Assembly: GCA_003290165.1 (NCBI GenBank)
Contig: QNQO01000200.1
Span: 186,001-250,000, forward strand
Source of the DNA: Berberis thunbergii
Taxonomy: Eukaryota; Streptophyta; Magnoliopsida; Ranunculales; Berberidaceae
Reading direction: 5' to 3'
Length of the DNA stretch: 64,000 nucleotides
Position 1 is the first letter of the stretch, and every line of letters begins with the position of its first letter. Positions 9,121 to 61,347 of this stretch are shown piece by piece. The translations under genes and the position numbers were made by a program. The notes under the pieces were generated by a model. That model did not search any database, was not told the DNA's origin, and was given only the letters and a program-made list of their open reading frames with translations.

Positions 9121-9414
9121 CGATCTCCCTGATTTTCATCTCCCTGATTCTCAGTGAGATGCCAGAGTAAGCTTGACTGAGATGAAGAAGAGTGAGCTTG
9201 AGCTTGAATCTTGACTGAGACGAAGAAGATTGAGTTTGAGTGAGATGAGGACCTTGAGCTTTCTGTTTGAGTGAAATGAAGAGCTTTATTTCTATTTGAG
9301 TGAAATGAAATGAAGAGCTTTCTTGCTTTCTTTCTGTTTGAGTGAGAAAAACTTTCTTTCTGTTTGAGTGAAATGAAGAGTTTGACTTTGAGTGAGATAA
9401 AGAAGATTGAAGTG

Positions 9415-9665
9415 AGGGTTTGATAAAAAAGACAAATAGGGTTGAGTGTGGCTATGGGTTTGGTTTGGTTAGGTAACTTGGGTTTGATAAAAAAGACAAA
9501 TGAGATAGAGATAATGAAATGAGGCGTGAGGGTTGAGTGTGGCTATGGGTTTGGTTTGGTTGGGTAACTTGGGTTTGATAAAAAAAGACAAATAGGGTTG
9601 AGTGTGGCTATGGGTTTGGTTTGGTTGGGTAACTTGGGTTTGATAAAAAAGACAAATGAGAGAGA
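9415..9665. repeat. Tandem repeat, about three units, inside hAT copy A
   Basis: The block GGTTTGATAAAAAAGACAAA, then GTGTGGCTATGGGTTTGG and GGTAACTTG, repeats with unit lengths varying between about 65 and 120 bp owing to an extra GAGATAATGAAATGAGG segment in one unit. The same array exists in copy B at 59.92-60.16 kb. Confidence 0.8.
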
Positions 9666-10128
9666 GATAATGAAATTATGAATGGATTGTTATTTTTAAA
9701 ATTATTTAAATTATTATTTTAATCATTCAAATATATGGTAAATTTCTTTCTTTTGTACCATATTTGTTTAAGCTTTAATGAGGTATTTCATATTTGTTTA
9801 AGCATTTAATTTATTATGTTATATTTATATAGGAATATTTTATATTTGATTTTTAATTTTATTTAATTTGTTTATTTGTTTAGGCTTTGACAAAGCGAAT
9901 ATTTGATCCTTAAAGCTTAAGTGAGTATTTAATTTCATCTGCTGAAAATGCCATTATCTCAAGTTCTTAATATTTGGTAAGGTTTCTTCTCTTTCATATA
10001 TTAATTATTGATTTACATTACAAATTTGATAATTTGGGAATCTGGGATAGCATTTATTAATATGAATATTGGGATTTGTGTTGTTGTATTTGTGTAGTTA
10101 AATATTTGAGCACTTGTGCTGACGAGTG

Positions 10129-12144: not shown

Positions 12145-12162
12145 GAACAACTTGATGCTCAT

Positions 12163-26946: not shown

Positions 26947-27738
26947 ATGGATGTGGACCTCCTAAAATCTGCAACAGAAGAAGATCAGATGGAGATGATG
27001 ATGATGATGCACATGGACAACAATAATAACCACCACTACCACCACCCCAACAACAAACTAGCCGAATTCGGCAGCGCGGTGCCATTCCCTGACATGGCTG
27101 AACTATCATCAATTGACTTCACTACCACTAATGGAGCTAGTGCTGGTCTTTGCACCCCACCATCTATGTTATCATCTCCTACATTGTTATCTCCACACCC
27201 TTCCTTTTCTTTCTTGAACTCATCATTCCATGACCCCGTCCCTCCCAACCCCCTACGTGGGGAATTTTCAGGTACAAGTACATTTCCATGTCCTTCACAA
27301 AAGCGTAACAACTCGTCCATGGCAGCCATGAGGGAGATGATATTCCGTATCGCAGCAATGCAGCCAATTCACATTGACCCAGAGTCCGTGAAGCCTCCAA
27401 AGCGCAGGAATGTCAAGATATCAAAAGATCCACAAAGTGTAGCAGCGAGGCACCGAAGAGAAAGGATAAGTGAGAGGATAAGAATTCTTCAAAGACTTGT
27501 TCCTGGTGGGACTAAGATGGATACTGCTTCCATGTTAGATGAAGCAATTCACTATGTTAAGTTCCTGAAGACTCAAGTGCAGTCTTTGGAGAGAGCTGCC
27601 ACTAATAGGCCTGCCGGTCTAGGGTTCCCAACGACGCCACCACTTTCTAGCCCAAATTACACTTGTTTGGGAAGACCGTCTTCTTACCAACAGAATAACA
27701 ATCAGATGATGTTTAGTTCAACTCAGATGCTTAGCTGA
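26947..27738 (+). CDS. HEC1/HEC2: HECATE1/2-type bHLH transcription factor
   Basis: A 263-residue single-exon protein. The N-terminus is low-complexity (Met run 16-21, Asn/His-rich 25-36). The conserved HEC block begins at about 125 ([20 protein letters not shown]), followed by the Pro/Lys linker and the bHLH domain: basic region about 160-175 ([16 protein letters not shown]), helix 1, loop PGGTKMD, helix 2 ([20 protein letters not shown]) to about 215. The basic region has Ala where E-box binders have the contacting Glu, as in all HECATE proteins, which act largely as dimers with SPATULA-type partners. Known roles are gynoecium and transmitting-tract development and stem-cell timing in the nucleus. 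HYVKFLK..VQSL points to HEC1/2 rather than HEC3. Intact; slightly longer than the Arabidopsis proteins. Confidence 0.95.
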
Positions 27739-33418: not shown

Positions 33419-35400
33419 TAATAATTACATAATTATAAAATTTTTTATCTTTTATTATATTTTTGTTAATCCTTGTTTTTATTTTATTTTAGATTAATTA
33501 TTAAATTTTTATGTTTTTGTAGAATGTGGAGCTGTAATGAAGAAATCAAAGACAAATACAATGAACAATATCAGATGGTGACTTCAAAGGAAGTGGAGGT
33601 GAAAATAGCATAAGCCCATAACCTAAACTCAAAATCAAATCCATAAACCAAAACTCAATACTAAGCCCAATCAAACCCTAAGCATATTCTCTTAATTATT
33701 CAAGATTCTGATTTATTTTTGGCTTAAATCACTCATTGAACCCTCCCCTTAACTTGTCCATATTCATTTTCTTAGTTCTCTATAAATACAAGAGAAATTA
33801 ATGAGAAAGGGAAGGTGGAGAAGGGAATCAAGCCTCAATAGCAAAAAACAAATCTTTTTTCCTTCACTAAGTGATTTTCATCACCATCCCAATCAAGCAA
33901 ATCTAGGTTTTCTCTTCCTCACCCCACTGAAACAGGGGCGTGACAACCTTGTTTCACTTCACCTCGCCACCGTCCAACAACCACAGCCGCCACCACCATC
34001 AGACTCCACCTCTTTACCCTGTTTCGCACACCCACAACCGCCACCATCTCCCTGTTTCTCTCATCATCCCCTGTTCTCACCGTCACAAGCCGCACAACAC
34101 AACCACGCACCTCTAGCCCCTGTCCCTGTCGCAAACAACCACACACAACCACCGCCCACGACTCCTTTTTGTTCCTCTCTTCTTCCCTTGTTTTCGTGTC
34201 TCTCTCTTCACCTCGCTACCGTCCAACAGCCAACCACCGAGCATGTCCCTGTTTTCTTCCCTCGCAGCCGTCACGACTTCCTATTGCTCTCTCCACCACC
34301 TCATCTTCCTTTTTGCTTCTCTCTCTTTACCACCTTTCACAGCACCTGCAACAGCATGAAGTTCTCCCGCACGTTTCCCGCTCTCTCGGTCTATAACAAA
34401 GAACTAGAACAGAGAAGCAGTACCAGAGCAGAGAAACAATCGTGAACTGAAAAAGAAGCAGCAAGGAATGGCAAAACTCACAAGAGTTCCAGAGCCGCTT
34501 AAAGGACGAAGGAGCTCGCGAGGAGCAGAAACGAGGCAGCGTGAGCGGCGCTGCTCGCTGGAGATGAAAGCACAGAGGACATGATTTTTCTGGCTGGAAC
34601 CAACTGTTTTTCAAACAGTTGGTTATTGGCACCCCAAGATTTTGTAAGAGCCACCACAATACACTTGCAACAATTTCTCGGGATTTGTGTTTGGACCACC
34701 TGCTGATCTGCTGAGTACCACCGCATCGAGTTTGCGACCCACCAAAAGGGTTGTATAATTTATTTTACTGACTTAAATGCTTAATTGATAATTACAATTT
34801 TATTTCAAAATTTTGATAAATTGCTTTCACCTTTCATGTTCGATTAAAACTTGATATGTTTGGTAGTTAGATTCACATTTTATCAATATTCAAAGCATGT
34901 GCTAAAAATTATTAAGCTTAGACTTTGATTAAGTGTTCCTTAAAAATACACTTAATGTTTGGTAAGAGTTTATTTATTTGAGATAAATTGTTAATGTTTG
35001 ATAGAAACTTGATATGATTGGAATTGAATTTTAATGATCACATCTTCGGTGCAATCAAGAGATCTTCACCCCTAAAACTTCTCGTTTATAAGTTCAGTAA
35101 TTTATATTTAAATATATTTGCTAACTCATCGGTGAATCCAAACCCCACAAAATCCATCTCATCCATCTTTTCCTTTTATTTTATTTTTCATATTTTTAAT
35201 TTATTTTTAGTTTAGTTTTAAAAATACTGTAACCCCATTTTTCTCCAAATTAGTTTAATTAAATTATTAAATTCAATTTAATCCACCTTCCTCGTGGGAT
35301 CGACCCGTACTTGCCGTTGTCTACTAGTTAGACACCGTGCACTTGCAGTTATTACAAGTGTGTCAAATTGGCCTATTTATTTAGGTCAGTTAAGCCAGCA
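33419..35400 (+). repeat. 5' LTR of the large element
   Basis: About 2.0 kb, ending in CA at 35,400 just before the primer site. It contains a TATA box (TATAAATAC, 33,781) after TTCTC and a C-rich stretch (33,960-34,160). The long open frames in this LTR (e.g. 33,801-34,445) occur in both strands, are not kept in the 3' LTR copy, and lack family motifs, so they are not called as genes. Confidence 0.85.
33780..33790 (+). promoter_or_regulatory. TATA box in the 5' LTR
   Basis: CTATAAATACAAG in an otherwise ordinary context, 361 bp into the LTR, with the same word at the equivalent place in the 3' LTR (40,130). It probably starts the element's RNA. Confidence 0.65.
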
Positions 35401-39769: not shown

Positions 39770-41805
39770 TGATAATCACATAATTATAACATTTTTACCT
39801 CTTATTATATTTTTGTTAATCCTTGTTTTTATCTTATTTTAGATTAATTATTAAATTTTTGTGTTTTTGGAGAATGTGGAGCTGTAATGAAGAAATCGGA
39901 GAAAATGCAATGAACAATCCCAGATGGTGACTTCAGAAGAAGCGGAGGTGAGAATAGCCTAAGCCCATAACCTAAACTCAAAACCAAACCCATAAACCCA
40001 AACCCAATGCTAAGCCCAATCAAACCCTATGCATATTCTCTCAATTATCCAAGATTCTAATTTATTTTTGCCTTAAATCACTCATTGAACCCTCCCCTTA
40101 ACTTGTCCATATTCATTTTCTTAATTCTCTATAAATACAAGAGAAATTAACGAGAAAGGGAAATAGGAGAAGGGAATCAAGCCTCAATAGCAAAAAACAA
40201 ATCATCTTTCCTTCACAAAGTGATTCTCATCACCATCCCAACCAAGCAAATCTAGGTTTTCTCTCCCTCACCCCACTGAAACAGGGGCATGACAACCCTG
40301 TTTCACTTCACCTCGCCATCGTCCAACAACCACAGCCACCACCACCATCAGACACCACCTCCTCACCCTATTTCGCACACCCACAATCGCCACCATCTCC
40401 CTGTTCCTCTCCTCATCCCCTGTTCTCACCGTCACAAGCCGCACAACACAACCACGCACCTCCAGCCCCTGTCCCTGTCGTAAACAACCACATACAACCA
40501 CCGCCCACCACTCCCTTGTTCCTATCTTCTTCCCCTGTTTTCGTGTCTTTCTCTTCACCTCGCCACCGTCTAACAGCCAACCATTGAGCACCACCATCAA
40601 ACGCCCCCACCATCACCACCTTGCGCAAAAAACAGAGAAGAAAACAGGGAGCACGTCCCTGTTTTCTTCCCTCGCAACAGTCACGACCTCCTGTTGCTCT
40701 CTCCGCCACCTCATCTTCCTTTTTGCTTCTCTCTCTCTACCACCTTCCACAACACCTGCAACAGCTTGAAGTTCTCCCGCGCGTTTCTCGCTCTCTCGGT
40801 CTGTAACAAAGAACTGGAACAGAGAAGGAGTACCAGAGCAGAGAAGCAATCGTGAACTGAAAGAGAAGCAGCAAGGAATAGCAAAGCTCGCAAGAGTTTC
40901 GGAGCCGCTTGGAGGACGAAGGAGCTCGCGAGGAGCAGAAATGAGGCAGCGCGAGCGGCGCTGCTCACTGGAGACGAAGGCACAGATGACGTGGTTTTTC
41001 TGGCGGGAACCAATTGTTTTTTCAAACAGTTGGTTATTGGCACCCTGAGATTCTATAAGAGCCACCACAGTACACTTTCAACAATTTCTCGGGATTTGTG
41101 TTCGGACCACCTGCTGATCTGCTGAGTATCATCACATCTAATTTGCGACGCACCAAAAGGATTGTATAATTTGTTTTACTGACTTAAATGCTTAATTGAT
41201 AATTACAATTTTATTTTAGAAATTTGATAAATTGCTTTCACCTTTCATGTTCGATTAAAACTTGATATGTTTGGTAGTTAGATTCACATTTTATCAATAT
41301 TCAAAGCATGTGCTAAAAATTATTAAGCTTAGACTTTGATTAAGTGTTCCTTAAAATATACTTAATGTTTGGTAAGAGTTTATTTGCTTGAGATAAATTG
41401 TTAATGTTTGACAGAAAATTGATATGATTGGAATTGGATTTTAATGATCACATCTTCGGTGCAAGCAAGGGATCATAATCCCTAAAGCTTATTGTTTATA
41501 AGGTCAGTAATTTAGATTTAAATATATTTGCTAACTCATCGGTGAGTCCAAACCCACAAAATCCATCCCATCCATCTTTTCATTTTATTTTATTTATTTT
41601 ATTTTTAATTTATTTTTAGTTTAGTTTTAAAAACACTGTAACCCCATTTTTCTCCAAATTAGTTATAATTAAATACAATTTAATCTACCTTCCTCGTGGG
41701 ATCGACCTGTACTTGCCGTTGTCTATCAGTTAGACACCGTGCACTTGCGATTATTACAAGTGGGTCAAATTGACCAATTTATTTAGGTCAGTTAAGCGCG
41801 TAACA
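39770..41805 (+). repeat. 3' LTR of the large element
   Basis: Starts TGATAATCACATAATTATAA and ends TAACA. It matches the 5' LTR along its whole length with scattered substitutions and small indels, e.g. an extra C-rich/CACCATC segment near 40,590-40,650. The TATA box is repeated at 40,130. Confidence 0.85.
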
Positions 41806-44896: not shown

Positions 44897-47639
44897 TTTT
44901 TTAATTTTAAAATTAAAAATCTCTGCTATGGAGAAACAGCTATGGTATGTCAGACTTTAATTACTTGTCCCAAAACGGGATATAATAACAAATTGGTAAG
45001 GAAAAAACAGAAACTAGACAAATATATTTTCTAGACTGACCAAACCCCTAGATCAATGCATGTACTTGCTTTTAATTTTCTTCATTCTAGATGATCTTTG
45101 AGGAAATACCTTGAAGTCTTTGAAGTAGTCATGGTCCATCGTGTTTTCTGTTGACATATTCCTCTTATCGGATCTTTTCGTTAATCGAATGTGGTATGTC
45201 TTTAAACCAGCCACTATTCTTGACTTAATGGTGTATTCATCCAAATCTTCTTCATTCGAAATGGTTTCATCATGTCGGTATCGGTCTCCAATTGAGTTTG
45301 CTGTTAGTGTTACAAACCAAATAGTTAATATGTTTTATATTCGGTGCTTCAATTACTACGACGTCTACTAAAGTTTTGTCATCTTGTACATCACCCTCCT
45401 CATCTGCTGGAACCCTGTCTTGTTGATCAAGTGCCAATGGACTGGCTGCAGCCAGCTCGATAGCACCGGCGTGCTCCCGAACGGACACCCCTAACTGCCC
45501 TGCCTCAATGGCTTCAAGCCTATTTGACGAGCTGCCCTCCAAACTGCTAAACAATACATCCCCTGTCCTGATTCCAGGTACCGTCATGGTCCTTGCCTCT
45601 GCGCGGTGGTGAGCCTGCTAGGTGCAGTTCTGTCCTGACCAGCACAACCTATTAAAATCGATGTCCCTGCATCTTGTCGCAGTGAATTCAATACAAAATT
45701 CAATCCCGACCCCGTGTTACCAGCAATCACTTCCCTTGCTACTACAGCTGCGACGTCCCCTGTATCTATGCTGGCAATATTCACGTTTCCTGCTCCCAAT
45801 CGGACTATGAGTCCTGCAACCTCGGTATCAGCTAGCACACTCCCTGCTTCCAATGGTACTACACATCCTGCAACAACATTGACCACATCACCCGCTCTAC
45901 CAGTAATCGCACCACCATGGCCAATAGACTCAACTACTGCTCCCACACACGATCCATGAATCATGTTTCCAGCCGAATCCTTCTCCACCAACATGGAAGG
46001 GGTCTCAGTCCTAGTCGTGTCATCCTCAAACTCTGTTTGAAAAACTCTTTCAATCTCGCTAGCGGTGTACCCTGCATCTTTACAATCCGATATAAACTTG
46101 GAAACCAAGTTTTCTTTCGAACTAGTAATGAAAGGTTCCTCCGAAATATTCAACTTGGAAACTTCAATTTTTTTTTCCTTGTCAAATCCTCATCTCCCAA
46201 AACCTTGCTTGAGGAACTCGCATTCATAATTGTCCCTGCAACATAATCCTCGCCTAAAGCAAGTCCCCCTTCTTTACAAACATGAACAAGACTAGAAGTG
46301 CTACACAATTTGTTGCCATTCTTGGAATTTACCACTCCTTCCAGATTAGCAACCTTTTCTAAATCTTTGGTTTCCTGAATTGCATAATTCTTTTTCAAAA
46401 TCGCCAATGGATTAGCAACCAAAATCTCATTGCCCGAATCGTCTCCATCTTGCAAATCTAAACTTGTTAAAATTCCAAAAGCATTCTTCAAGGCAGTGCC
46501 TTCATTCCTTACTGTGCTAGGGACTAAACCCACTCTGTCCCCCCCCCTTTTTGTGTTTCACTAGGGCTAGCATTACTTGAATTCTTAGGGCCGACCTCCC
46601 CTCCTTCCTCCTCCTTATTTCGGTTGCTTGGACCAACCTTGTCGACCCTGGATTCAGCCAATGGAATAACAATCTCAGCCTGCTTCATGACTGGCTTGTA
46701 AACTTTATTAGCTATTCCCTTTCCTTTCGGTTTGGACACTACATTCTTCTCCCTTCCATTATGGGTTTGCATATGCTCCTCTTTCGACTTAACCCCCCAT
46801 TTCGTCTTCTCCCTTGTTTCTACTCTTTCGGATCCCCAACCTCTTTCTACAAGCTTCAAAGGTGTGGTCAATCATAGAACAATTTTCACAATATTTAAAG
46901 CTCGGATATACAATTTTTTTGCCAAAATTCGTCGGATCCAGAGAACTCTAACCAAATTCTACTAGGAAGCTCTTTGGAAAGATCCATCTCTACGCACATC
47001 CTAGCCACCCCGGGACTGGTGAAACCAAGAGTGCTATCATCAATTCTAAGAAATGTACCAATTTCTTTTAAAAACAAAGGATGAAAAAATTACGAAGGAA
47101 CATTAGGAAGATCCACCCACAAAGGGGCTAGCACCGGATCTTCCCTAAGGCTAAATCCTTGATGCCAATGGAATGCTTTGAATCTAACCCCTCGGATCAT
47201 AAAAGAATCTTGCAACAAAGCCTTACTAACTTCATCTTCCGATTGAAATCTAGCAATCACATATCTTGGATCTAACAAACCCATGGTGAAATCACCTACA
47301 ACTCCCCAAGATCTATGGACGGTTTCACGGATAGCCTCAAGGGAAGGGCGATAGCTAGAAAACTTAAGAACCATAACAAACTTTTTTCACATACCTTTCA
47401 CATCGCTTTGCTTCGGAGACATTCATTGAAAGTGTCAGGCAACCATCCTTACTAAAACGATTCCCCTTCATAGGTTTTTCTTCAATGATTGCCTTCTTCA
47501 CAACTCCCCAGGCTTGGAGGAAACTACAATGTGGAGTAACCTCGGATGGGGCGCCACCACCTCCCAATGGAGGCTCTCCTCCCTTGGCGGCTTGAGAAGT
47601 CCATGAAGAAGAAGAGAGAACTCTACAGCCTACGGTCCC
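44897..47639 (-). mobile_element. LINE derivative with ORF1 and 3' tail but no ORF2
   Basis: Bounded by the 14-bp duplication TTATTAAGCTAGTT. The left edge starts with T's (poly(A) on the minus strand) and a ~50-bp tail similar to the 3' end of the LINE at 0.74 kb. From the right edge the minus strand runs through a short leader and the ORF1 modules (47.57-46.86 kb), then a variable Ser/Gly/Val-rich C-terminal part to about 45.27 kb. No endonuclease, reverse transcriptase or RNase H is present. The presence of both ends plus a clean duplication argues that this 2.74-kb form itself was inserted, rather than having lost ORF2 afterwards. The element is analogous in layout to ORF1-only half-L1 elements known in mammals. 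Confidence 0.8.
45270..47620 (-). pseudogene. LINE ORF1 (DUF4283 / zinc-knuckle nucleic-acid-binding protein), broken
   Basis: N-terminal part at 47.57-47.36 kb (FLQAWGVVKKAIIEE). A DUF4283 segment lies at 47,374-47,090 (DPRYVIARFQSEDEVSKALL and WHQGFSLREDPVLAPLWVDL), with an in-frame TAA after NVPS. The rest of the domain is at 47,077-46,895 (ARMCVEMDLSKELPSRIWLE). A frameshift in an A run near 46,917 is followed by a zinc knuckle, CENCSMIDHTFEAC (CX2CX4HX4C), at about 46,895-46,850. Lys/Glu-rich and Val/Gly-rich stretches continue to 45,270. ORF1 proteins bind the LINE RNA. This copy has at least three breaks. Confidence 0.8.
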
Positions 47640-47653
47640 TTATTAAGCTAGTT
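47640..47653. repeat. Target-site duplication (right) of the ORF1-only LINE
   Basis: TTATTAAGCTAGTT, identical to 44,883-44,896, followed by ordinary lipase-intron sequence and exon 2 about 110 bp on. Confidence 0.85.
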
Positions 47654-49060
47654 GTTACTCTCTTATGGTTTGCTTTGATAATCTAACCTCGTTCCCAAAA
47701 TAATGAAAATAATGAATAATTAAATAAAAGATCATTAGCTAATGAGGACGATTTTATGTAGGAAAATTGGTTATGCCCGATAGGTCATTCGTGACATTGA
47801 AATCAATTATTGGATATGTAGACAGTAGAGTGGAATTAGACAAGAACATCAAATATGGAGACAACAAATACTACGGGGCACTCTTCATAATGGCTTCCAA
47901 ATTGGCTTATGAGGATGAAGCCTTCATCAAAGCTACAGTCACAGATCACGGGAAGGTAAATCAATAACTTTTTGTTGTTCAGGATATTGTATAAAATTTT
48001 CTAGCTTCATCAAAATTCAATAAAGATTTGGTGATTGTTGCAGATGGACTTTTTGGAGTTCTACAACTTTTGGAATGGTAAGAAGCTGGTAACAACATTG
48101 TTCTCTGATTTGTCTACCTTCAGCCCTATAAGAAGTGTTGATCATCGTTTGTTTATAAACAACATTATTTGGCAGATTACCAAGACCGATTCTCAACACA
48201 AGCCTTCATGTTCTAGAATAAAAACACTTATCTTGAATTCATCTTAGTAGCATTTAGAGGAACTGAACCATTCAACACAGATGCATGGCAAAGTCCACAG
48301 TGGCTTCATGAAAGCTCTTGGCCTTAAAAAACCCAAGTGTTGGTCTAAATAGATCATCAGACAAACAGACCAAGATAACGATCACCCCTTAGCTAATTAC
48401 ACCAGTAGAGAAAAACTTACAAGAGTTATTGCAAAAGAACTATAGAGCCAAGTTCGTCGTGACAGGTCACAGCTTGGGTGGGGTGCTGGCAATTTTGTTT
48501 CTTTTAATTTTGATGGTACTTGAGGAGAAATGGTTGTTGAAAAGGCTGGAAGAGAGTATACACATGGATAGCCAAGGGTGGGAGATAAAAAAGGTTGGAG
48601 AGTTCATGAAGAAGGAAATGAAAATTTGCATGGAGTGAAGTATATTAGGTATGTTTATTGCAATGACATGGTGCCTAGGTTGCTTTATAATGATTCCACA
48701 GCCATGTTTAAGCACTTCAGGACTTGCTTGTACTATAATAGTTCTACGAAGGTAATGTGAGTTGGTTTTCTGTTCAACTCACAAATAATAATGCCTCCTG
48801 TATACATACATATAAAGAGGTCTTGATGTTTGTGAAACAGATTGTAGAAGAAGAGCCGAACAAGAATTACTTCTCGGTGTTCAAGGTTGTACCGAAAATC
48901 CTAAATGCTGCATGGATGATCCACGTCATCCTTCCCTATATGAAGGGGCCTGAGTATAAGGAAGAGTGGTTTATGAGGTTGATTAGAGTGATTGTATTGA
49001 TACTCCCAGAATTATCAGCCCACATGCTTCAAGATTATGATAACGCCTCTCGTCTGGGAT

Positions 49061-49118
49061 CAATCTTAAACCTTCATAACAAAGACTGAATTCATCAAGA
49101 TCCCAAAGTTGATGATTA
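49061..49118. repeat. 58-bp direct repeat, left copy, at the viral block edge
   Basis: Starts CAATCTTAAACCTTCATAAC and overlaps the last codons and stop of the lipase pseudogene. The second copy (55,526-55,583) differs at two positions and has the same orientation. Confidence 0.9.
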
Positions 49119-49379
49119 GTGTTCATCTTCTCCAGGAGGAATAGTGTTGTGAGTCCTAGGTACTGTTGGTTAGCCGTTGATGACGTTGGTCAGCCTTAGG
49201 GTATGTTGGTTAGCTGTTGGAGACCTTTGTAGCTCGCTAAGTTTGTGCAGTTACCAGGGTTAGGTGGTCCCATATCTGTGGTCCAGTCGTAGGTGGTCTA
49301 AGTACAATGTTCCAACCATTCTACTTTTTTGAAATTGTGAAAATGTCTTTGTTTTCAAAATTTACCCGAACTTTTAGCT

Positions 49380-50416
49380 TTAGACAAAGCAATCCAGACT
49401 TATAAAACAGGATGGAATGTAGAATTCTAGAAGTTGAACAAAATTTACAAAAATGGTCCATACTAAAAGTTCCTTACAAACAAATTTATCAAGTTTCTCA
49501 ATCCATTTTTTCACAAAAATCTGAATATCTGATAGACATTGTCGAACAGACAATGCCGCTTGATGGTTCTTTAGAATCAAAATAACCGATTTCTTAAAAT
49601 ACCCTTGAATTTCTCAAAAATCAATATTACAAGTACATCCACATCGGTCTTATCCAAGTAGGAATCAAACCTCTTACTAGGACTGGTCTTGATACTTGTG
49701 CTCTTATCGCCCTTCGCGATTGTCGGCACAATAGATTACACGAATCTCTTCTGGGAATTGCAGAGTCTACTCTTGCTATGGGTCCAGTCTATTTTGACTG
49801 TTACCCTAACTTCTCAGTGTCTTTCAAGGATCCAAATCTCCTTGAAACACTGACTCTCAATATTCAAACCTCTGGTTTCGATATGTTACCAGGATCTGAA
49901 CTTCTTGTCCTTATTTACAAAATCACTTACAAAGCCATGAAAACTCAATTGAGTCCGAAAGCTTTGATGGAGTCTGAAAAAGGTTATACAATCTTATTTC
50001 AGGCTAACAAGGACAAAACTAGTTTTATTGTCCCCAAGACAATTCACTGGAATCAAGTTACTCTTCCAGTAACTTGGCAGGTTTAAGCTTCTCCTAGAAA
50101 GCCTCCTCCTAGTTTGCTCAGTCAGGTTTTGACTTTAGAAGATGGAATTGTTGAATTACAGTTCTCTAAATCTCGCAAAACTAGGTTACAACCTTTAGAT
50201 TTTCAATCTGGACGTAGATTTGAATCATCTTTCAGAACTGCTCCTACTCAAATTCCTAGAACCCCTCCCCCAGAGGTTCTCCCTCATTTAGATCTTGCTA
50301 ACTTAAGATCTAATCCTTATCATCCTCAGATCCCTCAACCAATTTACAATCAACCATCAGAAAATCTTCTAATAGATTTCCAACTCGTTCTGAGATGGAT
50401 GATCCTGCACAATTGA
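49380..50416 (+). pseudogene. Viral movement-protein (30K-type) region, decayed
   Basis: Plus-strand translation contains HIGLIQVGIKPLTRTGLDT, then ALIALRD and MGPVYFDCYPNFSVSF, the hallmark central region of caulimovirid movement proteins, which tubulate plasmodesmata for cell-to-cell spread. In-frame stops occur near 49,405, 49,585 and 50,084, and a Pro-rich linker follows. It is a relic. The same region is present in inverted orientation at 54.0-55.3 kb with different lesions. Confidence 0.75.
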
Positions 50417-51342
50417 ATGTTTTATCTGCTGAATTTGTTCTAAATAAACAAAAGGTTAAAGATGAATTTTCAAAGGATTACAATTCTGATAAACGAAAAA
50501 CATTTTATGAGCAAACTACTCCTGACCAAAGGATTAGTTTAGGTAAATTGTTTTATCAATTCTGTCAAGATATCAAAAATCATATGCCATTTTTAGAATG
50601 GTATGAATCCATTTATCTATCATAATTGAATGTGATAAAAAATGCTTATAAACCGTGGCATCTGAAAAACAACTCTATTGTCGAATCAGTTTTGTCTCCT
50701 TTAGAAGAAATTCATATTCAATCCCAATGACAGACTGTTACAACACCTCCTTTTAAAAATCCAATATCTCTTTCTGATTCTACATGAATTTTGAAGGTTA
50801 TTAAGCAAAATAATTACACCAATATTTTGCTTAATGAAATTGATCAACAATTGACTTCTATTCCTGTTCCAGAAATATTTTTTTTAACAAAAAAATTTGA
50901 AAAACCAATCACTTATTTTCAACCTTATACAATTGAGCATAATGCCCTTTCTACTCCTCCTCAAATCATGGATGAAATCAATTGAAGACTTGCAGCATTA
51001 AAACTTCAGGCTGCATCTGTCTCTGATAGGGCTTCATCTTCAAAAAAACAAATCAATACTCTTTCTCATATTGGTTCTGATTGTTCTGACAATGAACCAG
51101 ATGTTATGTCTAAATTGGATAAACTTCAAAGATTTGAAGCCAATCCAATGCGTTCATCCAAAACGAATATCAATACAAATCTTTTACCAACAACTAGGAA
51201 TTGTTATCCTAGGCTAACTTATTCTGATATGTAGTATGAAGAAAATCATTTACAAACATTCGGTTCCTTTTCTACAGGTAACATCTATACTTGGAATATA
51301 GATGGCTTAGCTGAAGAAAATATTATCGAATTAACACAAGAA

Positions 51343-51960
51343 ATGATTATGATGGCTGCTGCTCATCGAAGTGAGCATAAATCTCACCAAAGTATTGCTA
51401 GTGTAATTGTTGCTGGATTTGCAGGACAATTAAAAGAATGGTGGGATAACTATCTCACACCATCTGAACAACAAGGAATTTTTCAGGCTATAAAGCTTGA
51501 TTTCAATGGTCATCCTATTAAAGCTGAAAATGGTGAAAATATTCCTGACATTGTCAATACACTAATTTTCGCTATTCTTAAGCATTTCATAGGCGATCCT
51601 TCAAAATTTCAAGATAAATCTCGTGATCTTCTCATGATCATTAGATGCAAAACTCTTAGTCACTTCAGATTCTATAAGGATGTATTCTTAAAAAAAGTTA
51701 TGCTTCAAAACGAAGCTAACAATCCTTTCTAGAAAAGGAAGTTTCTTTCTGGATTACCTCTTGTTTTCACAGGTATCGTTAGGGATAATCTGCAATCTGA
51801 ATACAATGGTGACATACCTTTTGAACGACTTACAATTGGAGACTTAATTGCTAAGATCAATGAGGTTGTCCTGCAACTTTGTAATGATCTCCGTCTCAAA
51901 GCTCAGCTTAAAACGACAAAATATTTCTGGTTCTAATGAACTTGGATATTTTTGTCAACA
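51343..51960 (+). pseudogene. Viral capsid (Gag-like) region, decayed
   Basis: Contains AGFAGQLKEWWDNYLTPSEQ, then HFIGDP and (after a stop at 51,730) KFLSGLPLVFTGIVRDNLQS, the pattern of the helical capsid core in caulimovirid and related reverse-transcribing elements. A stop near 51,730 and frame drift before the zinc knuckle break it. Confidence 0.65.
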
Positions 51961-52157
51961 GTATGGGTATGAGCCACTAGCAAAACATTTTCCTTAAACC
52001 TCCAAACAAAAGTATCGGTTTCATCCAGCCCGACACTTTAAGTCCAAAAGGCCTTATGGCCCAAAACAACAAAAGAAATTTAATAATTATTACCAAAAGA
52101 CCAACAGACACGGCACACACAAGTCCACATAGTTTTCTAAACACAACAGCCCTATGG

Positions 52158-52206
52158 TTCAAAAGCCCATTTGTTTTAAATGTGGCAAACCTGGCTAATA
52201 TGCAAA
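52158..52206 (+). pseudogene. Zinc-knuckle remnant with a stop at the zinc-ligand His position
   Basis: CFKCGKPG is followed by TAA and YAKNC. The CX2C pair and final Cys remain, but the codon in the usual histidine position is a stop. In the ancestral protein the knuckle bound viral nucleic acid next to the capsid core. Confidence 0.7.
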
Positions 52207-52711
52207 AAAATTGCAGAACATCCCAAATAATTCATGAGCTTGACGCTGATGAAAATATCAAACAAATGTTTACTATAGTTTTACTCAATTCTGAGTCTGA
52301 TTCTAACTCATCTGAAGACCTCCAGGTTTATCAAATGCGTTATGATTCCAATTCTTCAGATTTCAGAAGAATCGATCAGGATCACGGAGTTAAAGCTTGC
52401 ACATGTAATGCCTTACACTCTATCAATATGCTCTCAAAAATTAAAGAATCAAGTATTCTTTTAGATTTTGTTGATCGAATTGATGATCCCAAACTCAAAA
52501 CTGAGTATTTAACTCATATAAAAATATTATTACTCAAAAACCTGTTCCAGAGATTTTTCAACCGTTTTACAATCATAAGGATATTGTCAATAGATTCAGA
52601 GCTCTTTCTCAACACTCTGTTTCTTTCCCTGATCTTCAATCTGAAGTTAATATCATGAAAAAAGAAATTGCTCAACTTAAACAAGCTCAAACTTAGCTTA
52701 CTCAACAACTG

Positions 52712-53344
52712 TTGAATCACCAAATTCAAAATGCAATCTCTATTCTTGATATTCCATCAACTTCTAACCAAGAAGTTCAACCAACTGATCCAACTTTTCT
52801 CAATGAATTAAATACAGTTACATATCACAAATGGTATATCAATGTGACCTTAGTAATTAATAAAAATTACACGATCAATACCTTTGCCTTTGTTGATTCA
52901 GGTGCTGATTTAAATTGTATTGCAGAAGGATTAAACCCTTCTCAATATTATGAGAAAAATACTCAACAACTTTTTACTACTAATAGTAAATTAGTTGTTT
53001 GGTACAAACTTGTTGGTGCCCACATTTGTCAATAACAAATTTGTATACAGCAGGATTTCTTGCTAGTTAAGGATATGACTCAAAATATGATTTTGGGTAC
53101 ACCATTCTTAACTACTCTCTATCCTTTTGATGTTACAAATAATGGTATTTCTACCAATATTCTTGGCAAAAAGATCATAATCAAATTCTTATGCAAAACA
53201 AAAATTGCTGAAATTAATTCTCTAAAATTAGACAATTGTTTTATCAATTTTATTTTCCGAAAAAGACAACACTTACATTTTCTCAAACAAGAAGTGAAAA
53301 AATCAGTATATCGTCAATATACACAATTGTTTCCAATTGTTTGA
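52712..53344 (+). pseudogene. Viral aspartic protease region, decayed
   Basis: TFAFVDSGADLNCI (about 52,883-52,920) carries the DSG catalytic triad of retropepsins, and MILGTPFLTTLYPFD (53,080-53,130) is the typical second half of the fold. A stop at about 53,033 separates the two. Similarity then runs up to the junction with the inverted copy at about 53,365, before any reverse transcriptase motif. Confidence 0.7.
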
Positions 53345-53364
53345 GATGCCACGGTTTCTCAATT

Positions 53365-55513
53365 TCCAATTGTTAAAAAATTATTTTCTGGAACAGGAAT
53401 AGAAGTCAATTGTTGATCAATTTCATTAAGCAAAATATTGGTGTAATTATTTTGCTCAATAACCTTCGAAATTCCTAGGGCTGAAAACCGAACCGTCGGT
53501 TCGGTTTTTCACCTAAACCGTGAACCGAACCGACTTATATCGGTTTTAAAATTTTCAAACCGAAACCGAACCGACCATTAACAAAACCGATCCGAAACCG
53601 AACCGATTCCAATTTATGCAAACCGTAACCGAACCGAACCGAATATTTAAACATATTATATTATTTATAAATAAAATATATTTTATTTTTATATATAAAT
53701 AATATATTATATTTAAATATTCGGTTCGGTTCGGTTTGGTCGGTTTAAATCACATAGAAACCGAAAACCGAACCGACCACTTCGGTTTTGCATTTTTTTA
53801 AACCGAAACCGATCCGAACCGAATTTAAACCGAACCGATTGGTTCGGTTTTGATCGGTTCGGTCGGTTTGATCGGTTTTTTGTTCAGCCCTAGAAATTCC
53901 TGTAGAATCAGAAAGAGATATTGGATTTTTTAAAGAAGAGGTTGTAACAGTATGTCCTTGGGATTGAATATGAATTTCTTCTAAAGGAGGCCAAACTAAT
54001 TCGACAACAGAGTTGTTTTTCAAATGCCACAGTTTAGAAGCATTTTTTATCACATTCAATTGTGATAGATAAATGGATTCATACCATTCTAAAAATGGCA
54101 TATGATCTTTGATATCTTGACAGAATTGATAAAACAATTTACCTAAACTAATCCTTTGGTCAGGAGTAGTTTGCTCATAAAATGTTTTTCGTTTATCAGA
54201 ATTGTAATCCTTTGAAATTCATCTTTAACCTTTTGTTTATTTAGAAAAAATTCAACAGATAAAACATTCAATTGTGCAGGATCATCCATCTCAGAACGAG
54301 TTGGAAATCTATTAGAAAGATTTTTTGATGGTTGATTGTAAATTGGTTGAGGGATATGAGGATGATAAGGATTAGATCTTAAGTTAGCAAAATCTAAATG
54401 AGGGAGAACCTCTGGGGGAGGGTTTCTAGGAATTTAAGTAGGAACAGTTCTAAAGGATGATTCAGATCTACGTCCAGATTGAAAATCTAAAGGTTGTAAC
54501 CTAGTTTTGCGAGATTCATGGAACTATAATTCAACAGTTCCATCTTTAAAGTCAAAACCTGACTGAGCAAACTAGAAGGAGGCTTTCTAGGAAAAGCTTG
54601 AACCTGCCAAGTTACTGGAAGAGTAACTTGATTCCAGTGAATTGTCTTGGGAACAATAACACTGATTTTGTCCTTATTAGCCTGCAATAAGATTGTGTAA
54701 CCTTTTTCAGACTCCATCAAAGCTTTCAGACTCAATTGAGTCTTCATGGCTTTGTAGGTGATTTTGTAAATAAGGGCATGAGGTTCAGATCCTGGTAACA
54801 TATCGAAACCAGAGGTCTGAATAGTGAGAGTCAGTGTTTCAAGGACATTTGGATCCTTGAGAGACACTGAGAAGTTAGGGTAACAGTCAAAATAGACTGG
54901 ACCCATAGCAAGAGTAGACTCTACAATTTCGAGCAGAGTCGTGGAATCTATTGTGCCGACAATCGTGAAGGGCGATAAGAGCACATGTATCAAGACCAAT
55001 CCTAGTAAGAGGTTTGATTCCTACTTGGATAAGGCCGATGTGGATGTACTTGTAATATTGATTTTTGAGAAATTCAAGGGTATTTTTAGAAATTAATTGT
55101 TTTGATTCTAAAGAACCATCAAGCGGTACTGTCTGTTAGACAATGTCTATCAGATCTTCAGATTTTTTTGAAAAAGTGGATTGAGAAACTTGATAAATTT
55201 GTTTTTAAGGAAATTTTGGTATGGACCATTTTTGTAAATTTTGTTCAACTTATGGAATTCTACATTCTATCATGTTTTGTAAATCTGGATTGCTTTGTCT
55301 AGAGCTAGAAGCTTGGGTAAATTTTGAAAACAAAGACATTTTCACAATTTCAGAGAAGTAGAAGGGTTGGAACACTGTACTCGGACCACCTAACCCCGAT
55401 AACTGCACAAACTTAGCAACTTACAAAGCGCTCCAACGGCTGACCAACATACCCTAAGGCTGACCAACAATACCTATGACTCACAACACTATTCCTCGCG
55501 GAGAAGATGAACA
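53365..55513 (-). mobile_element. Endogenous pararetrovirus-like sequence, inverted arm
   Basis: Reverse complement of the forward arm (49,121 to about 50,890): the same leader, movement-protein region (about 55.3-54.2 kb) and linker, with independent stops and indels. At its outer end (minus strand) lies TGGTATCAAAGCC (55,515-55,527), close to the initiator tRNA-Met primer site that marks the genome start in caulimovirids. The forward arm lacks this site. A 417-bp MITE interrupts the arm at 53,476-53,892. The inner junction falls at a short T/A-rich segment, consistent with end joining. Confidence 0.75.
53476..53892. mobile_element. hAT-type MITE inserted in the viral arm
   Basis: Inverted termini TAGGGCTGAA / TTCAGCCCTA are flanked by a perfect 8-bp duplication GAAATTCC (53,468-53,475 and 53,893-53,900), the duplication size of hAT elements. 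The interior is dominated by CGGTTCGGTT / AACCGAACCG repeats in both orientations around an AT-rich centre (53,640-53,715), giving strong fold-back potential. No coding capacity. When it and one duplication are removed, the viral sequence reads straight through. Confidence 0.9.
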
Positions 55514-55525
55514 TGGCTTTGATAC

Positions 55526-55583
55526 CAATCTTAAACCTTCATAACAAAGATTGAATTCATCAAGATCCCAAAGTTGAGGATTA
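55526..55583. repeat. 58-bp direct repeat, right copy, at the viral block edge
   Basis: Same orientation as 49,061-49,118 and two substitutions different. It abuts the primer-site-like motif at the end of the inverted viral arm. Confidence 0.9.
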
Positions 55584-56862
55584 AAACTAGACTATAAGAT
55601 TGGTATGGGTGCAAATGATCTTCAGATTTTAATTGATGTCTTTATTAGCCAACATGTGAATTAGCTCTTTGTTCCAGAACAAGAAGTATTAGAATCGATG
55701 AAATGAGAGAGTTTTCGAGGAAAAATCTTTAATGTTCATTAAATTATAAATTAAAAATGCTTATGAACACTAGGGTGTCGACGGACTACGAATATTAAGT
55801 AATTTTTTATTTTATTACAATAGTTTAATAATAAGATAAAAATTATAATTGAATTTCTATACAAAATAATTATATATAATTTTGAAAGTCGATGTATAGT
55901 TTATAAATATAAGAGGCTTCAAATAAATTATGTTAGGAGCTTAAATATAATTAATAAATGTTCGAGAAGAGTGATTTTTATTATAAAAGTTTGAAATGTG
56001 GAGGATAAAACGAGAATCCAAAAGTCAGAAGTATGGGCCATTTTATAATTTCTGTACAATTGTGTCGCCAGACAGAATAGCGATTATCCTACAGGCTAGC
56101 TCTAGCATACAATTCACAGGAAATAACACAAGAGAATCGCCCAAAACACAGAGAAATATCTCTAATGTCAATTCAAAATTATGCAAATCAAAAGTATCTC
56201 TAAAGTCAGCTCACAAGCCGGGCTTTTTAGCTAAAACTCGTGATTATTAAAATTTTACCAAAAATAGCAAAACCCCAATAATTGAAGATGATTATTGCAA
56301 TTGATATCTTTTAAGCCGAGGACTCATCTTCAATTTTATATTTGGTGAAAATTTTGTGACTTGCATGTTGGTTCTACTAGCCACCACAAAGGAAGAGTTC
56401 AAGGTCGATTGTTACTCATGTGTTTTCTGAAGATATCATCATAAAATCTCGAATACTCATTTGCCAAGGCGGAGGAGAATGTGTAATATCGGTTATTTTT
56501 TATTTAATATTTAATTGGGCAGTCCATATTAAGGTCCCATTAGGAGTATGAGTCCAATTAGAATTATGGATTCAATTCAAGTAGGAGTTAGGGTTCTACT
56601 TTGTTTAGGAATTAGTTGCTTGCTTAGCAAGCTTTTGTCAATTACAATCATTGACCAATGTAATGGAAAAAATTTTTGAACTGTGATAGTTAATTGAATT
56701 TGTAAAACTTTGTCAGAATCAAGTTTCAATTATGTTTGGTTGATAGCTTCCACCTAACGTATAGTAAATCTAAAATACCTTTTAAGTACAAATTGATTTA
56801 TCATCTTCAAGAAAAGAACAAACCACCATATCAGCATCAATGCCTTTTAATGAAATGGCTCT
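55584..56862. other. Gene-free AT-rich interval, possible LTR start
   Basis: No coding region. Near 56,466-56,480, AAGGCGGAGGAGAA followed by TGTGTAATATCGG resembles a polypurine tract and LTR start of a decayed LTR retrotransposon, but no partner LTR was found. Confidence 0.35.
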
Positions 56863-56938
56863 CTCCACCCTCTATTTGGTATTTGTTGAATACAAATGGG
56901 GCTGCTAGGATGAACCCCGGTGCTTCCAGGGTTGGGGG
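56863..56938 (+). pseudogene. RNase H fragment interrupted by the hAT element
   Basis: IWYLLNTNGAARMNPGASRV resembles the start of the LINE-type RNase H domain (usually NTDGA...NPG..G.GG), with Asn in place of the first catalytic Asp. The hAT insertion at 56,939 cuts this segment. The sequence after the element (from 61,348) continues from the duplicated GTTGGGGG but is quickly lost. Confidence 0.5.
56931..56938. repeat. 8-bp target duplication (left) of hAT copy B
   Basis: GTTGGGGG, identical to 61,348-61,355. Confidence 0.9.
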
Positions 56939-57068: not shown

Positions 57069-59458
57069 TCAATGTAGATGCACTGTAGATTTAGGTAAAA
57101 GCTCTCTGCGGGTTTTCATGTTCTGGTAATGCTGCATAATCACCTCATCATCGATGCCATTAAATACATCTTTCTCAACATATGTAATCAAACTATCTGT
57201 CATCCACTGATCACCCATACGATTACGTAATCGATTCTTGACAATCTTCATAGCAGAAAACGTTCTCTTGACACTGGCAGTTGCAACTGGTAATATTAAG
57301 GCTAAAGTAATAAGCCAATAGACCAAAGGATACAAAATATTTTTTTTTGTCCTTACCATCTTCTCAGCAAGATTGCTAATTCCTGTCAAATTCAAGAACT
57401 CGCTATTCGACCTCACATCAACGATAAATGTCTCCAACTGATTATCAAGAGCATCAAGTTGTACTTCTGAGAAATCACTTGGATAAAACTGAGCAAAACA
57501 AATCAATTTCCCTTATCAAAATTCGAGAAGAAATCATTTGGACTCAAGCATGAAAGACATAAAAGCAATTCAGTATTCACTTCATTGAAACGATTGTTGA
57601 GCTCTTGAAGTTGCAAATCAATCACAACATTAAATAACTGAACCCGATAACGATGCATGTTTGTCACCTTTTCAACATTACGTCTTGACCGTCCCCGAGC
57701 AACATAAAATTTATCCAGGTTAGGCATTTCTATAACATGTTTGCTACAAAATAAGGAAACTTCGCTTAGCAAATTATTCCATCCATCATCTCGCATCGAC
57801 TGGAAGCGTTTCTTAGCTACTATGACCAAACTCATGGCATTCACAATATCTTGATCATTTCTTTGCAATGCTTGTGACAATTCATTTGTGATCCTAATGT
57901 ATTTTTCATCAAATGAAGTCCAAATGCAATATCAAAAGACAGTAGTGAATCTAATAAAGTGCATGCTTCAACTCTTTGCTCAGCATATTTTGAGGTCTCC
58001 TTAATGCACTCAAGCACATCGATGATAGAATTGAACAACTTAATCAAGCTTATCAAAGTATTGTAATGTGAGCTCCAACGTGTATCTCCGGCTTTTTTAA
58101 GAGTTGATTGTTGATTTTGGCCACTTCCACTTGCAAGTTCACCACTTTCAAGTGCTTTTAGAGTGTTAATAGATTGTGCTTCTAAAAGAATATCATGACG
58201 CTTACATGAGCCATCAACCACATTCACAACCCTCGTGATCAAAGAGAATAATAAAACAATGAAATCCTCATTCTTTGCAACGGCAATAAGTGCTAATTGA
58301 AGTTGATGTGCAAAGCAGTGAATATAAAATGCACTTCCATTCTCTTTTAAGATTAATGCTTTAAGACCGTTGAACTCATCTTGCATATTGCTTGCCCCAT
58401 CGTACCCTTGGCCACGTAGTCTTGAAATGCTTAACTTGTGCTTGGAAAATAAAACGTCAATTGATGCCTTTAGGGATAGAGCAGAAGTGTCAGAAACGTG
58501 TGCAATACCTAAAAGTCTTTCAATCACATGCCCGTGTTTGTCCACATAACGGATCACGGAAGCCATTTGCTCTTTAATTAATACATCACGAGCTTCATCA
58601 ACTAATATGGAAAACAAAGAATCTCCAAGGTCTTGAATGATAACATTTGTGGTTTCGGTTGCACAAGCATTCACAATATCTTTTTGAATTTTCGGTGCTA
58701 TTAATTTGAGATTCCCAGGACATTTATCCAAAGTTACCCTTTTGATGTCTTTATTGTGATCACCAAGAAAATGTAACATTTCCAAGAAATTCCCTCGGTT
58801 GTTTGAATCACAAGATTCATCATGACCACGAAAAGCTAATCCCTGTCGGAGTAAGAATCGAATACAAACAACAGAAACATTTAGACGAACCTTGTAATCA
58901 TTTCGAGCTTCATTTGTTTGCTTAATCACAACAGCCCGAAGATGTTGTTGTTGATTCATTAAAGTTTCACAATTACTCCATGCGTGATTGTGATAACTGT
59001 TAGACCCTCCAACATGTGTTTGTAACTTATCCTTTTTCTTCCAATTGGTAAATCCTTCAACGACAAAAGCATCACAAATACCCACATGCTCTTTACTCTC
59101 AGATCTAAAAAGGTAGCAACACAAGCAGTATGCAGCCTCGTTCTCTATGCTATACTCTAACCATGTAGGGAATTCATCAAACCATGAAGGATTGAAACGC
59201 CGTAAGACTTTTCCTTGCAAAGTTTGCTTAAAGTTATGTGTCCGAGGTTGGCAAGGACCTTTTTGCAAGTATGTTCTTCTAATTTCATCCCTTATGTTGG
59301 GATGATACTCCTTGATTGACTTACGTAATCTAGGGTCTGTTGGAAGAGTTTTTGGATCAAACTTAGTCTCAATACAACTCCTTATCAGACCTATCAGTGA
59401 CAGCCTGAGCAGTAGAACTAGAACTCACATTATTTATTCTTTTAAAGTATCTATCCAT
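57069..59458 (-). pseudogene. hAT transposase (TTF-zinc-finger/DUF4371 type), copy B, frameshifted
   Basis: Starts at 59,458 (MDRYFKR, intact CAG where copy A has TAG), then a ~20-bp deletion near 59,383 shifts the frame. The long open part (59,268-57,841) holds the TTF finger (AAYCLCCYLF), DUF4371 region, catalytic core (SILVDEARD, RGQGYDGASNM) and HCFAHQLQLALI. A 1-bp deletion near 57,891 and another near 57,509 break it again. The last segment carries the hAT dimerisation domain (LALILPVATASVKRTFSAMK). The lesions differ from those of copy A, so each copy died independently. In life the protein dimerises, binds the element ends and excises it. Confidence 0.92.
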
Positions 59459-59924
59459 CACTCGTCAGCACAAGTGCTCAAATATTTAACTACACAAATC
59501 CCAATATTCATATTAATAAATGCTATCCCAGATTCCCAAATTATCAAATTTGTAATGTAAATCAATAATTAATACATGAAAGAGAAGAAACCTTACCAAA
59601 TATTAAGAATTTGAGATAATGGCCTTTTCAACAGATGAAATTAAATACTCACTTAAGCTTTAAGGATCAAATATTCGCTTTGTCAAAGCCTAAACAAATA
59701 AAAAATTAAATTAAATTAAAAATCAAATATAAAATATTCCTATATAAAGATAACATAATAAATTAAATGCTTAAACAAATATAAAATACCTCATTAAAGC
59801 TTAAACAAATATGGTACAAAAGAAAGAAATTTACCATATATTTGAATGATTAAAATAATATTTTAAATAATTTTAAAAATAACAATCCATTCATAATTTC
59901 ATTATCTCTCTCTCATTTGTCTTT

Positions 59925-60930
59925 TTTATGAAACCCAAGTTACCCAACCAAACCAAACCCATAGCCACACTCAACCCCATTTGTCTTTTTTTTATCAAAC
60001 CCAAGTTACCCAACCAAACCAAACCCATAGCCACACTCAACCCTCACGCCTCATTTCATTATCTCTATCTCATTTGTCTTTTTTTATCAAACCCAAGTTA
60101 CCCAACCAAACCAAACCCATAGCCACACTCAACCCTATTTGTCTTTTTTTATCAAACCCTCACTTCAATCTTCTTTATCTCACTCAAAGTCAAACTCTTC
60201 ATTTCACTCAAACAGAAAGAAAGTTCTTCTCACTCAAACAGAAAGAAAGCAAGAAAGCTCTTCATTTCATTTCACTCAAACAGAAAGAAAGCTCTTCATT
60301 TCACTCAAACAGAAAGCTCAAGGTCCTCATCTCACTCAAACTCAATCTTCTTCGTCTCAGTCAAGATTCAAGCTCAAGCTCACTCTTCTTCATCTCACTC
60401 AAACTCAATCTTCTTCGTCTCAGTCAATACTCAAGCTCACTCTTCTTCATCTCAGTCAAGCTCACTCTGCATCTCACTGAGAATCAGGGAGATGAAAATC
60501 AGGGAGATCGACTTCATCAAAAGAGAGATCAATCTCCATCAGAGTTCATCAGAGTTTCTGATCTAGGTTTCGATCTCAGAAGTTTCTGATCTAGAGTTCA
60601 TATGGGTTTCAATCAGAGTTTCTGATCTAGAGTTTCGATCTTAGAAGTTTCTGATCTAGAGCTCATATGGGTTTCTCAGAAGTTTCTGATCTAGAGTTTC
60701 TGATTTCAGAGTTTCGATCAGAGTTAAGATCAGAGTTTCGATCAGAGTTTAGATCAGAGTCTGTGATTTCAGAGTTTAGATCAGAGTTTCTAATCTCAGA
60801 GTGTCGATATCAGAGTTCATCAGAGAAAGATCTGAGTTTCGATCTCTCAGAGTTCATCAGAGACAGATTTCCATCTCTCTCTGATCTCTCTCCATCTCTC
60901 TCTCTGATCTCTCTCTCGAGTTTCTGATCT
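59925..60930. repeat. Tandem and clustered repeats in the leader of hAT copy B
   Basis: Three CTTTTTTTTATCAAACCC / AACCAAACCCATAGCC units (59,925-60,160), then CTCAAACAGAAAG-type repeats (60,200-60,460), then TTTCTGATCTAGAGTTTC-type repeats (60,535-60,930). These mirror the clusters of copy A. Apparent open frames here are low-complexity and not genes. Confidence 0.8.
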
Positions 60931-61347
60931 AGGTTTTTTATTCATCAGAGAAATCCAAGGTAAGAAGAGATATTAAGATTAAAGTTGATTTTATTGTTCA
61001 ATTGTTCTGTTGATTTCATTTAGAATCTATAATAAAAAAAACTCACCTTGTTTCACAGGGATGGACAAGAAGCTATTGTTGAGGACCGAAAGCGTGGAGG
61101 CGGAGATTAGAAGCGTCAGTTGTTTTGTTTTTGTTTTTGTTTTCTTGAATTGTGATTGTGATTGTAATTGTAATTAGGGATTGTAATTATGATATGTGAT
61201 ATGTAATTGAGATTTTTGCTTTTATAAGAGGGGCAAAATAAAATTTCTAAGGGGGGCAAGATTGAAATTTTATATTACTTTGGTAGATTTTTTCAAAACC
61301 TAAGGGGGTCGATTTCCCCCCTTACCCAAGCTGTAGATCCGCCCCTG

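What the first reader, a model, noticed from the sequence alone, without database searches (positions are those of the whole stretch)
49121..55513. Endogenous viral block arranged as a large inverted repeat: a possible natural hairpin siRNA locus
The movement-protein region of a caulimovirid-like sequence is present twice in opposite orientation (49,121 to about 50,890, and 55,512 to 53,365 minus a MITE), around ~2.5 kb of capsid-to-protease sequence. Read-through transcription would give a long double-stranded RNA. Inverted repeats of this kind are known sources of small RNAs, so the locus could guard against a related virus. The arrangement is read directly; the immune role is inference.
Basis: partly seen in the sequence, partly recalled or inferred. 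Interest (0 to 1): 0.85.

Follow-up and report, generated by a model that had tools for sequence, protein, structure and literature searches.

The report
Fossil plant virus inserted as hairpin
A dead piece of an ancient plant virus sits in this plant chromosome as two mirror-image copies of one stretch that most likely entered together in a single event, so its RNA would fold into a long hairpin; whether that hairpin makes virus-silencing small RNAs was not tested.

Summary
The inverted repeat is real. Left arm 49119-50890 (+) and right arm 53353-55527 (-) are 93.7% identical over 1623 aligned bases, around a 2.4-kb viral capsid-protease loop. A second contig (C221), probably the other haplotype, carries the same repeat and flanks about 2% diverged but lacks the MITE, so an assembly error is unlikely.
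The block looks like one insertion: 58 bp of host sequence are duplicated at both outer edges, and a paralogous host site on two contigs shows the empty site. The right outer end starts at the first base of the viral primer-binding site, the left 13-14 bases inside it; the inner joint is a 60-bp patch containing a reverse-transcriptase snippet.
The arms are sisters among 40 sequences, share none of the stop codons counted and differ near-neutrally (dN/dS 0.80; 0.22-0.33 in 9 of 12 other pairs), so they were essentially identical when inserted.
A read-through RNA is predicted to pair 1639 of 1771 left-arm bases into the right arm. Small RNAs and immunity were untestable; constraint on the arms is not significant. 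Hairpin endogenous viruses are already described (tomato, soybean): a new member of a known kind, with a readable origin.

The parts
47767..49118 (+). Decayed class-3 lipase-like host gene (pseudogene) reading toward the viral block; the insertion lies at its 3' end
   Evidence: tblastn with paralogue L023 pieces, 47767-49110 in more than one frame with stops; paralogue hits Pfam Lipase_3, E 1.3e-32
49061..49118 (+). Left copy of the 58-bp host target duplication
   Evidence: 97% identical to 55526-55583; single copy in paralogous sites L027 and L028
49119..50890 (+). Left arm: viral leader, movement protein and start of capsid region; begins just after the 13-base primer-binding site
50891..53292 (+). 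Loop: viral capsid to protease sequence
   Evidence: DUF7746 at 51343-51729 (E 3.5e-16), aspartyl protease at 52712-53032 (E 2.8e-4); leaves the family alignment at about 53293
53293..53352 (-). Filler at the inner joint: about 34 nt of inverted reverse-transcriptase sequence, and possibly a short capsid piece
   Evidence: RT match of 34-35 columns, 85-91% identity, in 8 of 8 family loci searched (L013-L020); 16-18-nt capsid match is weak: L013, L015, L016 at E 0.2-0.6, C221 left arm (L010) at E 0.007
53353..55527 (-). Right arm: same viral stretch, inverted, primer-binding site outermost; interrupted by a MITE
53476..53892 (.). MITE with 8-bp target duplication (53468-53475 / 53893-53900), hAT-type by these features; absent on contig C221
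   Evidence: read; empty site; hAT label recalled, no family search made
55515..55527 (-). Viral primer-binding-site-like 13-mer, first bases of the viral map; 2-bp overlap with the host duplication
   Evidence: edges printed; L013, L015, L016 and L019 carry viral leader upstream of it, here host sequence follows
55526..55583 (+). Right copy of the 58-bp host target duplication

Best explanation
A fossil endogenous caulimovirid that entered the chromosome once, already as an inverted repeat. Two viral DNA pieces from the same (or nearly the same) viral sequence, each ending at or next to the primer-binding-site discontinuity, were joined tail to tail through short templated filler. The joined molecule was captured in a staggered break at the 3' end of a lipase-like gene, which duplicated 58 bp of host DNA. 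The arms were essentially identical at birth and have since decayed near-neutrally; a MITE later split one arm on one of the two contigs. Any + strand read-through transcript would fold into a 1.7-kb hairpin with a 2.4-kb loop, a substrate that in other plants is diced to 21-24-nt (mainly 22-nt) siRNAs. Shown by sequence: arms, flanking duplication with empty site, ends, RT-derived filler, near-identity at birth, predicted fold. Inferred: single event, break repair, transcription, dicing. Unsupported so far: present-day antiviral function.
For: Arms and fold. One insertion: 58-bp direct repeat at both outer edges, present once and continuous with both flanks in L027 and L028. Same structure on C221; arms group by position (W_L with C221_L, W_R with C221_R, 100/100 each) and the four arm rows together (100/99) among 40 rows. 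Right end at the first PBS base, left end 13-14 bases inside, so the right arm as it stands is not a copy of the left. RT-derived filler. Same parent: at the codons counted no stop is shared between arms (7 left, 5 right in the window rows); dN/dS 0.80 between arms, synonymous share as under neutrality (20 of 79, p=0.41), against 0.22-0.33 in 9 of 12 other pairs. The arms' stem carries 16 synonymous, 7 non-synonymous and no stop changes, as expected before insertion.
Against: 3 of 12 other pairs are not low either (L055-L056 0.45, L029-L034 0.75, L039-L051 1.11), so near-neutral dN/dS shows a shared recent viral parent, not one DNA molecule. The empty sites are only about 71-82% identical to the host flanks, lie on two contigs that may be alleles of each other, and four other paralogues (L023-L026) match the left flank but show no continuous right flank. 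A second insertion landing exactly on the edge of the first cannot be strictly excluded. No RNA data. The right-flank genome search did not complete.
Confidence: 0.82

Rival explanations
1. An active natural hairpin-siRNA locus that silences related virus or endogenous copies.
For: Predicted hairpin; 491 of 1750 left-arm 22-mers match the right arm perfectly; of 22-mers of 49290-50790 taken every fifth base, 17-72% match each of 36 other family copies with at most 2 mismatches; a review and passages describe siRNAs from inverted-repeat endogenous viruses in tomato and soybean; a host gene remnant points into the left arm; arms against loop divergence borderline (p=0.054).
Against: No transcript or small-RNA data; that host gene is decayed; no viral intergenic region in the block; arms against loop plus flanks p=0.12; no homogenisation of arms; no close IMG/VR relative with two queries. 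Perfect 22-mer matches to the other copies are few (2-17%).
Confidence: 0.3
2. Two independent insertions of related viral pieces that happen to lie head to head.
For: Family copies are abundant (1885 first-look candidates, 40 scored) and several loci are mosaics.
Against: One target duplication frames both; arms are sisters and near-neutral relative to each other.
Confidence: 0.08
3. Inverted duplication of the left arm in place, after insertion of a single viral piece.
For: The arms are each other's closest copies among the 40 rows.
Against: The right arm holds 13 bases at its outer end that the left arm lacks, followed directly by the host duplication; the joint contains RT-derived bases, while none of the block's ORFs scanned hit an RT domain.
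Confidence: 0.08
4. Assembly artefact.
For: Inverted repeats are prone to misassembly (general knowledge).
Against: Same arrangement and joint on two contigs about 2% diverged, with arm-specific differences that track position.
Confidence: 0.02

Closest known systems
TSAs: rearranged tomato endogenous caulimovirids in inverted-repeat form (Valli et al. 2023; paper not held, known here only through the review PMC10377300, section 16)
   Same: Endogenous caulimovirid rearranged into an inverted repeat that could form a hairpin
   Different: 22-nt siRNA evidence and silencing in trans are reported there and missing here; here insertion edges, ends and joint are readable
Soybean inverted repeat of CMV RNA1 (Da Fonseca et al. 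2016; known through passages of PMC6256188)
   Same: Viral sequence integrated as an inverted repeat, proposed hairpin source of 22-nt-rich siRNAs
   Different: Bromovirus RNA1 with a plant-derived spacer downstream of a retrotransposon promoter; here a caulimovirid with a viral loop and no promoter identified
Endogenous banana streak virus eBSGFV-7 (passages of PMC10377300)
   Different: Thought recent and able to release virus there; here both arms carry several stop codons
Endogenous florendoviruses (Geering et al. 2014, PMC4241990; passages and section 6)
   Same: High-copy endogenous caulimovirid with MP-CP-protease-RT-RNase H; capture by break repair proposed
   Different: That work stresses TA-repeat sites; here the site is a lipase-like gene end. 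Genus not established

Membership tests
Endogenous Caulimoviridae | Caulimovirid movement protein, capsid and protease | tested here: met
   MP in both arms, DUF7746, aspartyl protease in the window; Caulimovir_coat_dom next to DUF7746 in copy L015
Endogenous Caulimoviridae | Reverse transcriptase and RNase H | tested here: met
   Met for the family: domains in copy L015. In this block only a 34-nt RT snippet was seen
Endogenous Caulimoviridae | tRNA-Met primer-binding site as start of the viral map | tested here: inconclusive
   13-mer at the right end and, by a motif scan, in 5 of 8 other loci (L013, L015, L016, L019, L020); complementarity to initiator tRNA is recalled, not computed
Florendovirus | Polyprotein ORF1 followed by an ORF2 of unknown function | tested here: inconclusive
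   In L015 ORFs lie downstream of RNase H; two ORFs of the matching region in L013 and L017 had no Pfam match; PMC4241990 notes a petuvirus-like virus with a similar layout
Florendovirus | Position in an AP-RT-RH1 tree | not tested
   No tree made; no reference sequences were fetched
Hairpin-forming siRNA area (TSA) | Rearranged caulimovirid with inverted repeat | tested here: met
Hairpin-forming siRNA area (TSA) | Dense 22-nt small RNAs, transcript, silencing in trans | not testable with these tools
   No RNA or small-RNA reads available

The most novel reading that the evidence does not exclude
Hairpin endogenous viruses need not evolve stepwise: two nascent viral DNAs with free ends at the primer-binding-site discontinuity can be joined tail to tail and captured in one break-repair event, giving a ready-made, near-perfectly matched hairpin against the infecting virus in the generation of integration (instant heritable RNA immunity).
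Probability: 0.15. Interest if true: 0.75.

Novelty: new member of a known kind. Interest (0 to 1): 0.42.

Why it matters
It shows how an inverted-repeat endogenous pararetrovirus can arise: apparently one event, arms near-identical at birth, ends at the primer-binding site, RT-derived filler and a long target duplication. That separates the origin of such hairpins (repair accident) from any later immune use, and offers a datable locus in which to ask whether selection ever kept the hairpin. The review read here calls the integration mechanism of these viruses speculative.

Tried and rejected
Rejected: two independent insertions, in-place duplication, assembly artefact (see rivals). Led nowhere: IMG/VR scans with a movement-protein and an RT piece (1 and 7 pattern matches, none confirmed; a single protein finds close relatives only); a protein search with the L017 movement protein gave 5 hits at 38-50% identity, none with an informative name; genus assignment. 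A genome-wide census of inverted pairs was not possible: only the 40 best of 1885 candidates are scored, and the pattern search did not complete. Among those 40 hits the only opposite-strand neighbours within 10 kb were this locus and C221. In self-comparisons of eight other loci (not all independent, L013/L016 and L017/L018 are near-identical), 2 of 8 hold smaller inverted repeats (L015, 256 bp; L020, 549 bp), so inversion is not rare in this family. A test for constraint on the arms was run with slightly miscounted totals (p=0.14 and 0.054) and repeated with totals recounted (0.12 against loop plus flanks, 0.054 against loop, 0.30 against flanks). Valli et al. and Jia et al. could not be read: not held.

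Full report
What was checked. The finding claims a movement-protein region present twice in opposite orientation around capsid-protease sequence. Searches confirm it: 49119-50890 on + and 53353-55527 on -, 1521 of 1623 aligned bases identical (93.7%) in the main stretch; the inner 105 bp beyond the MITE are 94%. Pfam hits movement protein in both arms (E 1.4e-6 and 9.1e-8), DUF7746 and an aspartyl protease in the loop. The MITE is 53476-53892 with an 8-bp duplication (read; empty site).

Genome context. The window is G000:C200:186001-250000 of an unnamed 2.24-Gb assembly. A 301-base movement-protein query gave 40 scored hits of 1885 candidates, each at 90% identity or more. One other contig, C221, holds the same inverted pair with the same flanks (97.8% for 45000-52399, 52400-53476 and 53893-56884) and no MITE. 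A HEC-like bHLH gene of the window is 100% identical on C221, in the same order and orientation but about 9 kb farther from the block, so C221 is most likely the other haplotype (inference); the gene's next matches are at 93-94% on C1873 and C1969.

One insertion. A 58-bp direct repeat lies exactly outside the block. Searching the left flank in the genome found paralogous host copies. L027 and L028 match the left flank up to 49113 and, over one single copy of the 58 bp, continue into 55584-55606 and further short stretches: an empty site, at about 71-82% identity. L023-L026 match the left flank only. The flank is a decayed class-3 lipase-like gene. So both arms and the loop lie between two copies of one duplicated target.

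Ends and joint. The right arm starts at the first base of a 13-base primer-binding-site-like motif. Four other loci (L013, L015, L016, L019) carry viral leader upstream of that motif; here host sequence follows directly, with a 2-bp overlap. L020 also has an abrupt junction at or within a base of that point. The left arm starts 13-14 bases inside, so the right arm as it stands is not a copy of the left. Between the loop and the right arm lie 60 bases that contain a 34-nt piece of reverse transcriptase around its catalytic motif (8 of 8 family loci, 85-91%), inverted, and perhaps a 16-18-nt capsid piece, which is weak (E 0.007 at best). C221 has the same joint with a 10-bp difference. Short templated filler of this kind is a mark of error-prone end joining (general knowledge); the florendovirus paper and a review propose break repair for caulimovirid capture.

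Birth as an inverted repeat. A tree of 40 rows (4 arms, 36 other copies) puts window-left with C221-left and window-right with C221-right (100/100 each), and the four together (100/99). Arms differ with dS 0.067 and dN 0.054 (ratio 0.80; C221 arms 0.79). Of 12 other pairs compared, 9 give 0.22-0.33; the exceptions are L055-L056 (0.45), L029-L034 (0.75) and L039-L051 (1.11), close pairs within small clades. At the codons counted, 7 stops in the left and 5 in the right window arm, none shared. Codons with gaps were dropped, stop codons were left out of dN/dS, and codons without a 60% majority among 14 other copies were left out of the polarised count. On the stem before the arms split, 16 synonymous, 7 non-synonymous and no stop changes were counted. 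The arms thus split at or near integration from one functional viral sequence. Tree path between arms is 0.060-0.065 changes per site; with recalled plant rates of about 5e-9 to 1.5e-8 per site and year this is roughly 2-6 million years, an inference only.

Could it work as a hairpin? The + strand of the insert is predicted to fold at -3457 kcal/mol with 1639 of 1771 left-arm bases paired into the right arm; with the right half turned round the energy is -1664 and none of them pair across. 491 of 1750 left-arm 22-mers are perfectly matched in the right arm. The viral intergenic region, where the promoter of such viruses lies (recalled), is not in the block; read-through from the host gene remnant is possible but that gene is broken. 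Between the two contigs the arms changed at 50 of 3400 sites, the loop at 52 of 2396 and the flanks at 95 of 5353 (the filler, the inner 122 bases of the right arm and the two 58-bp copies were left out): arms against loop plus flanks p=0.12, against flanks 0.30, against loop 0.054. That is no significant sign of constraint, though a weak one cannot be excluded.

What is known. The review PMC10377300 (sections 12 and 16 and passages read) reports tomato caulimovirid inverted repeats making 22-nt siRNAs that silence in trans, and soybean cases; PMC6256188 (passages) describes an inverted-repeat bromovirus in soybean; PMC12904150 (passages) repeats the idea for Solanaceae; PMC9124383 (passages) ties endogenous pararetroviruses to 22-nt small RNAs in tomato hybrids. 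Searches for target duplications with endogenous pararetroviruses (8 listed) and for filler DNA and end joining with them (20 of 26 listed) showed no title or abstract start that describes a 58-bp duplication around an inverted pararetrovirus; of the listed papers only PMC10377300 and PMC4241990 were opened.

Verdict. Observation confirmed; interpretation partly supported. The locus is a new member of a known kind, with a clear record of origin.

Noticed in passing
8253-12160 and 57449-61347: Two copies of a hAT-like element in opposite orientation, 93.3% identical over 3986 columns: a larger inverted pair in the same window. The ORF at 57841-59268 hits DUF4371; its sister ORF at 10339-11433 looks alike but was not scanned
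   Followed up: no
33421-35395 and 39772-41797: Direct repeats about 92% identical, LTR-like, framing about 4.4 kb
   Followed up: no
1694-5775 (-): ORFs that look like a non-LTR retrotransposon with endonuclease, RT and RNase H (read, not searched)
   Followed up: no
26947-27738 (+): HEC-like bHLH gene (name recalled), 100% identical on C221 and 93-94% on C1873 and C1969, suggesting an older genome duplication
   Followed up: partly
L020:4497 and upstream: Another family copy with an abrupt junction at the start of the primer-binding site, here against inverted protease-region sequence, plus a 549-bp inverted repeat
   Followed up: partly
family copies on other contigs (L029-L064): Many copies come in near-identical pairs on different contigs, as if both haplotypes were assembled; the window/C221 pair is more diverged (about 2%) than most
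   Followed up: partly
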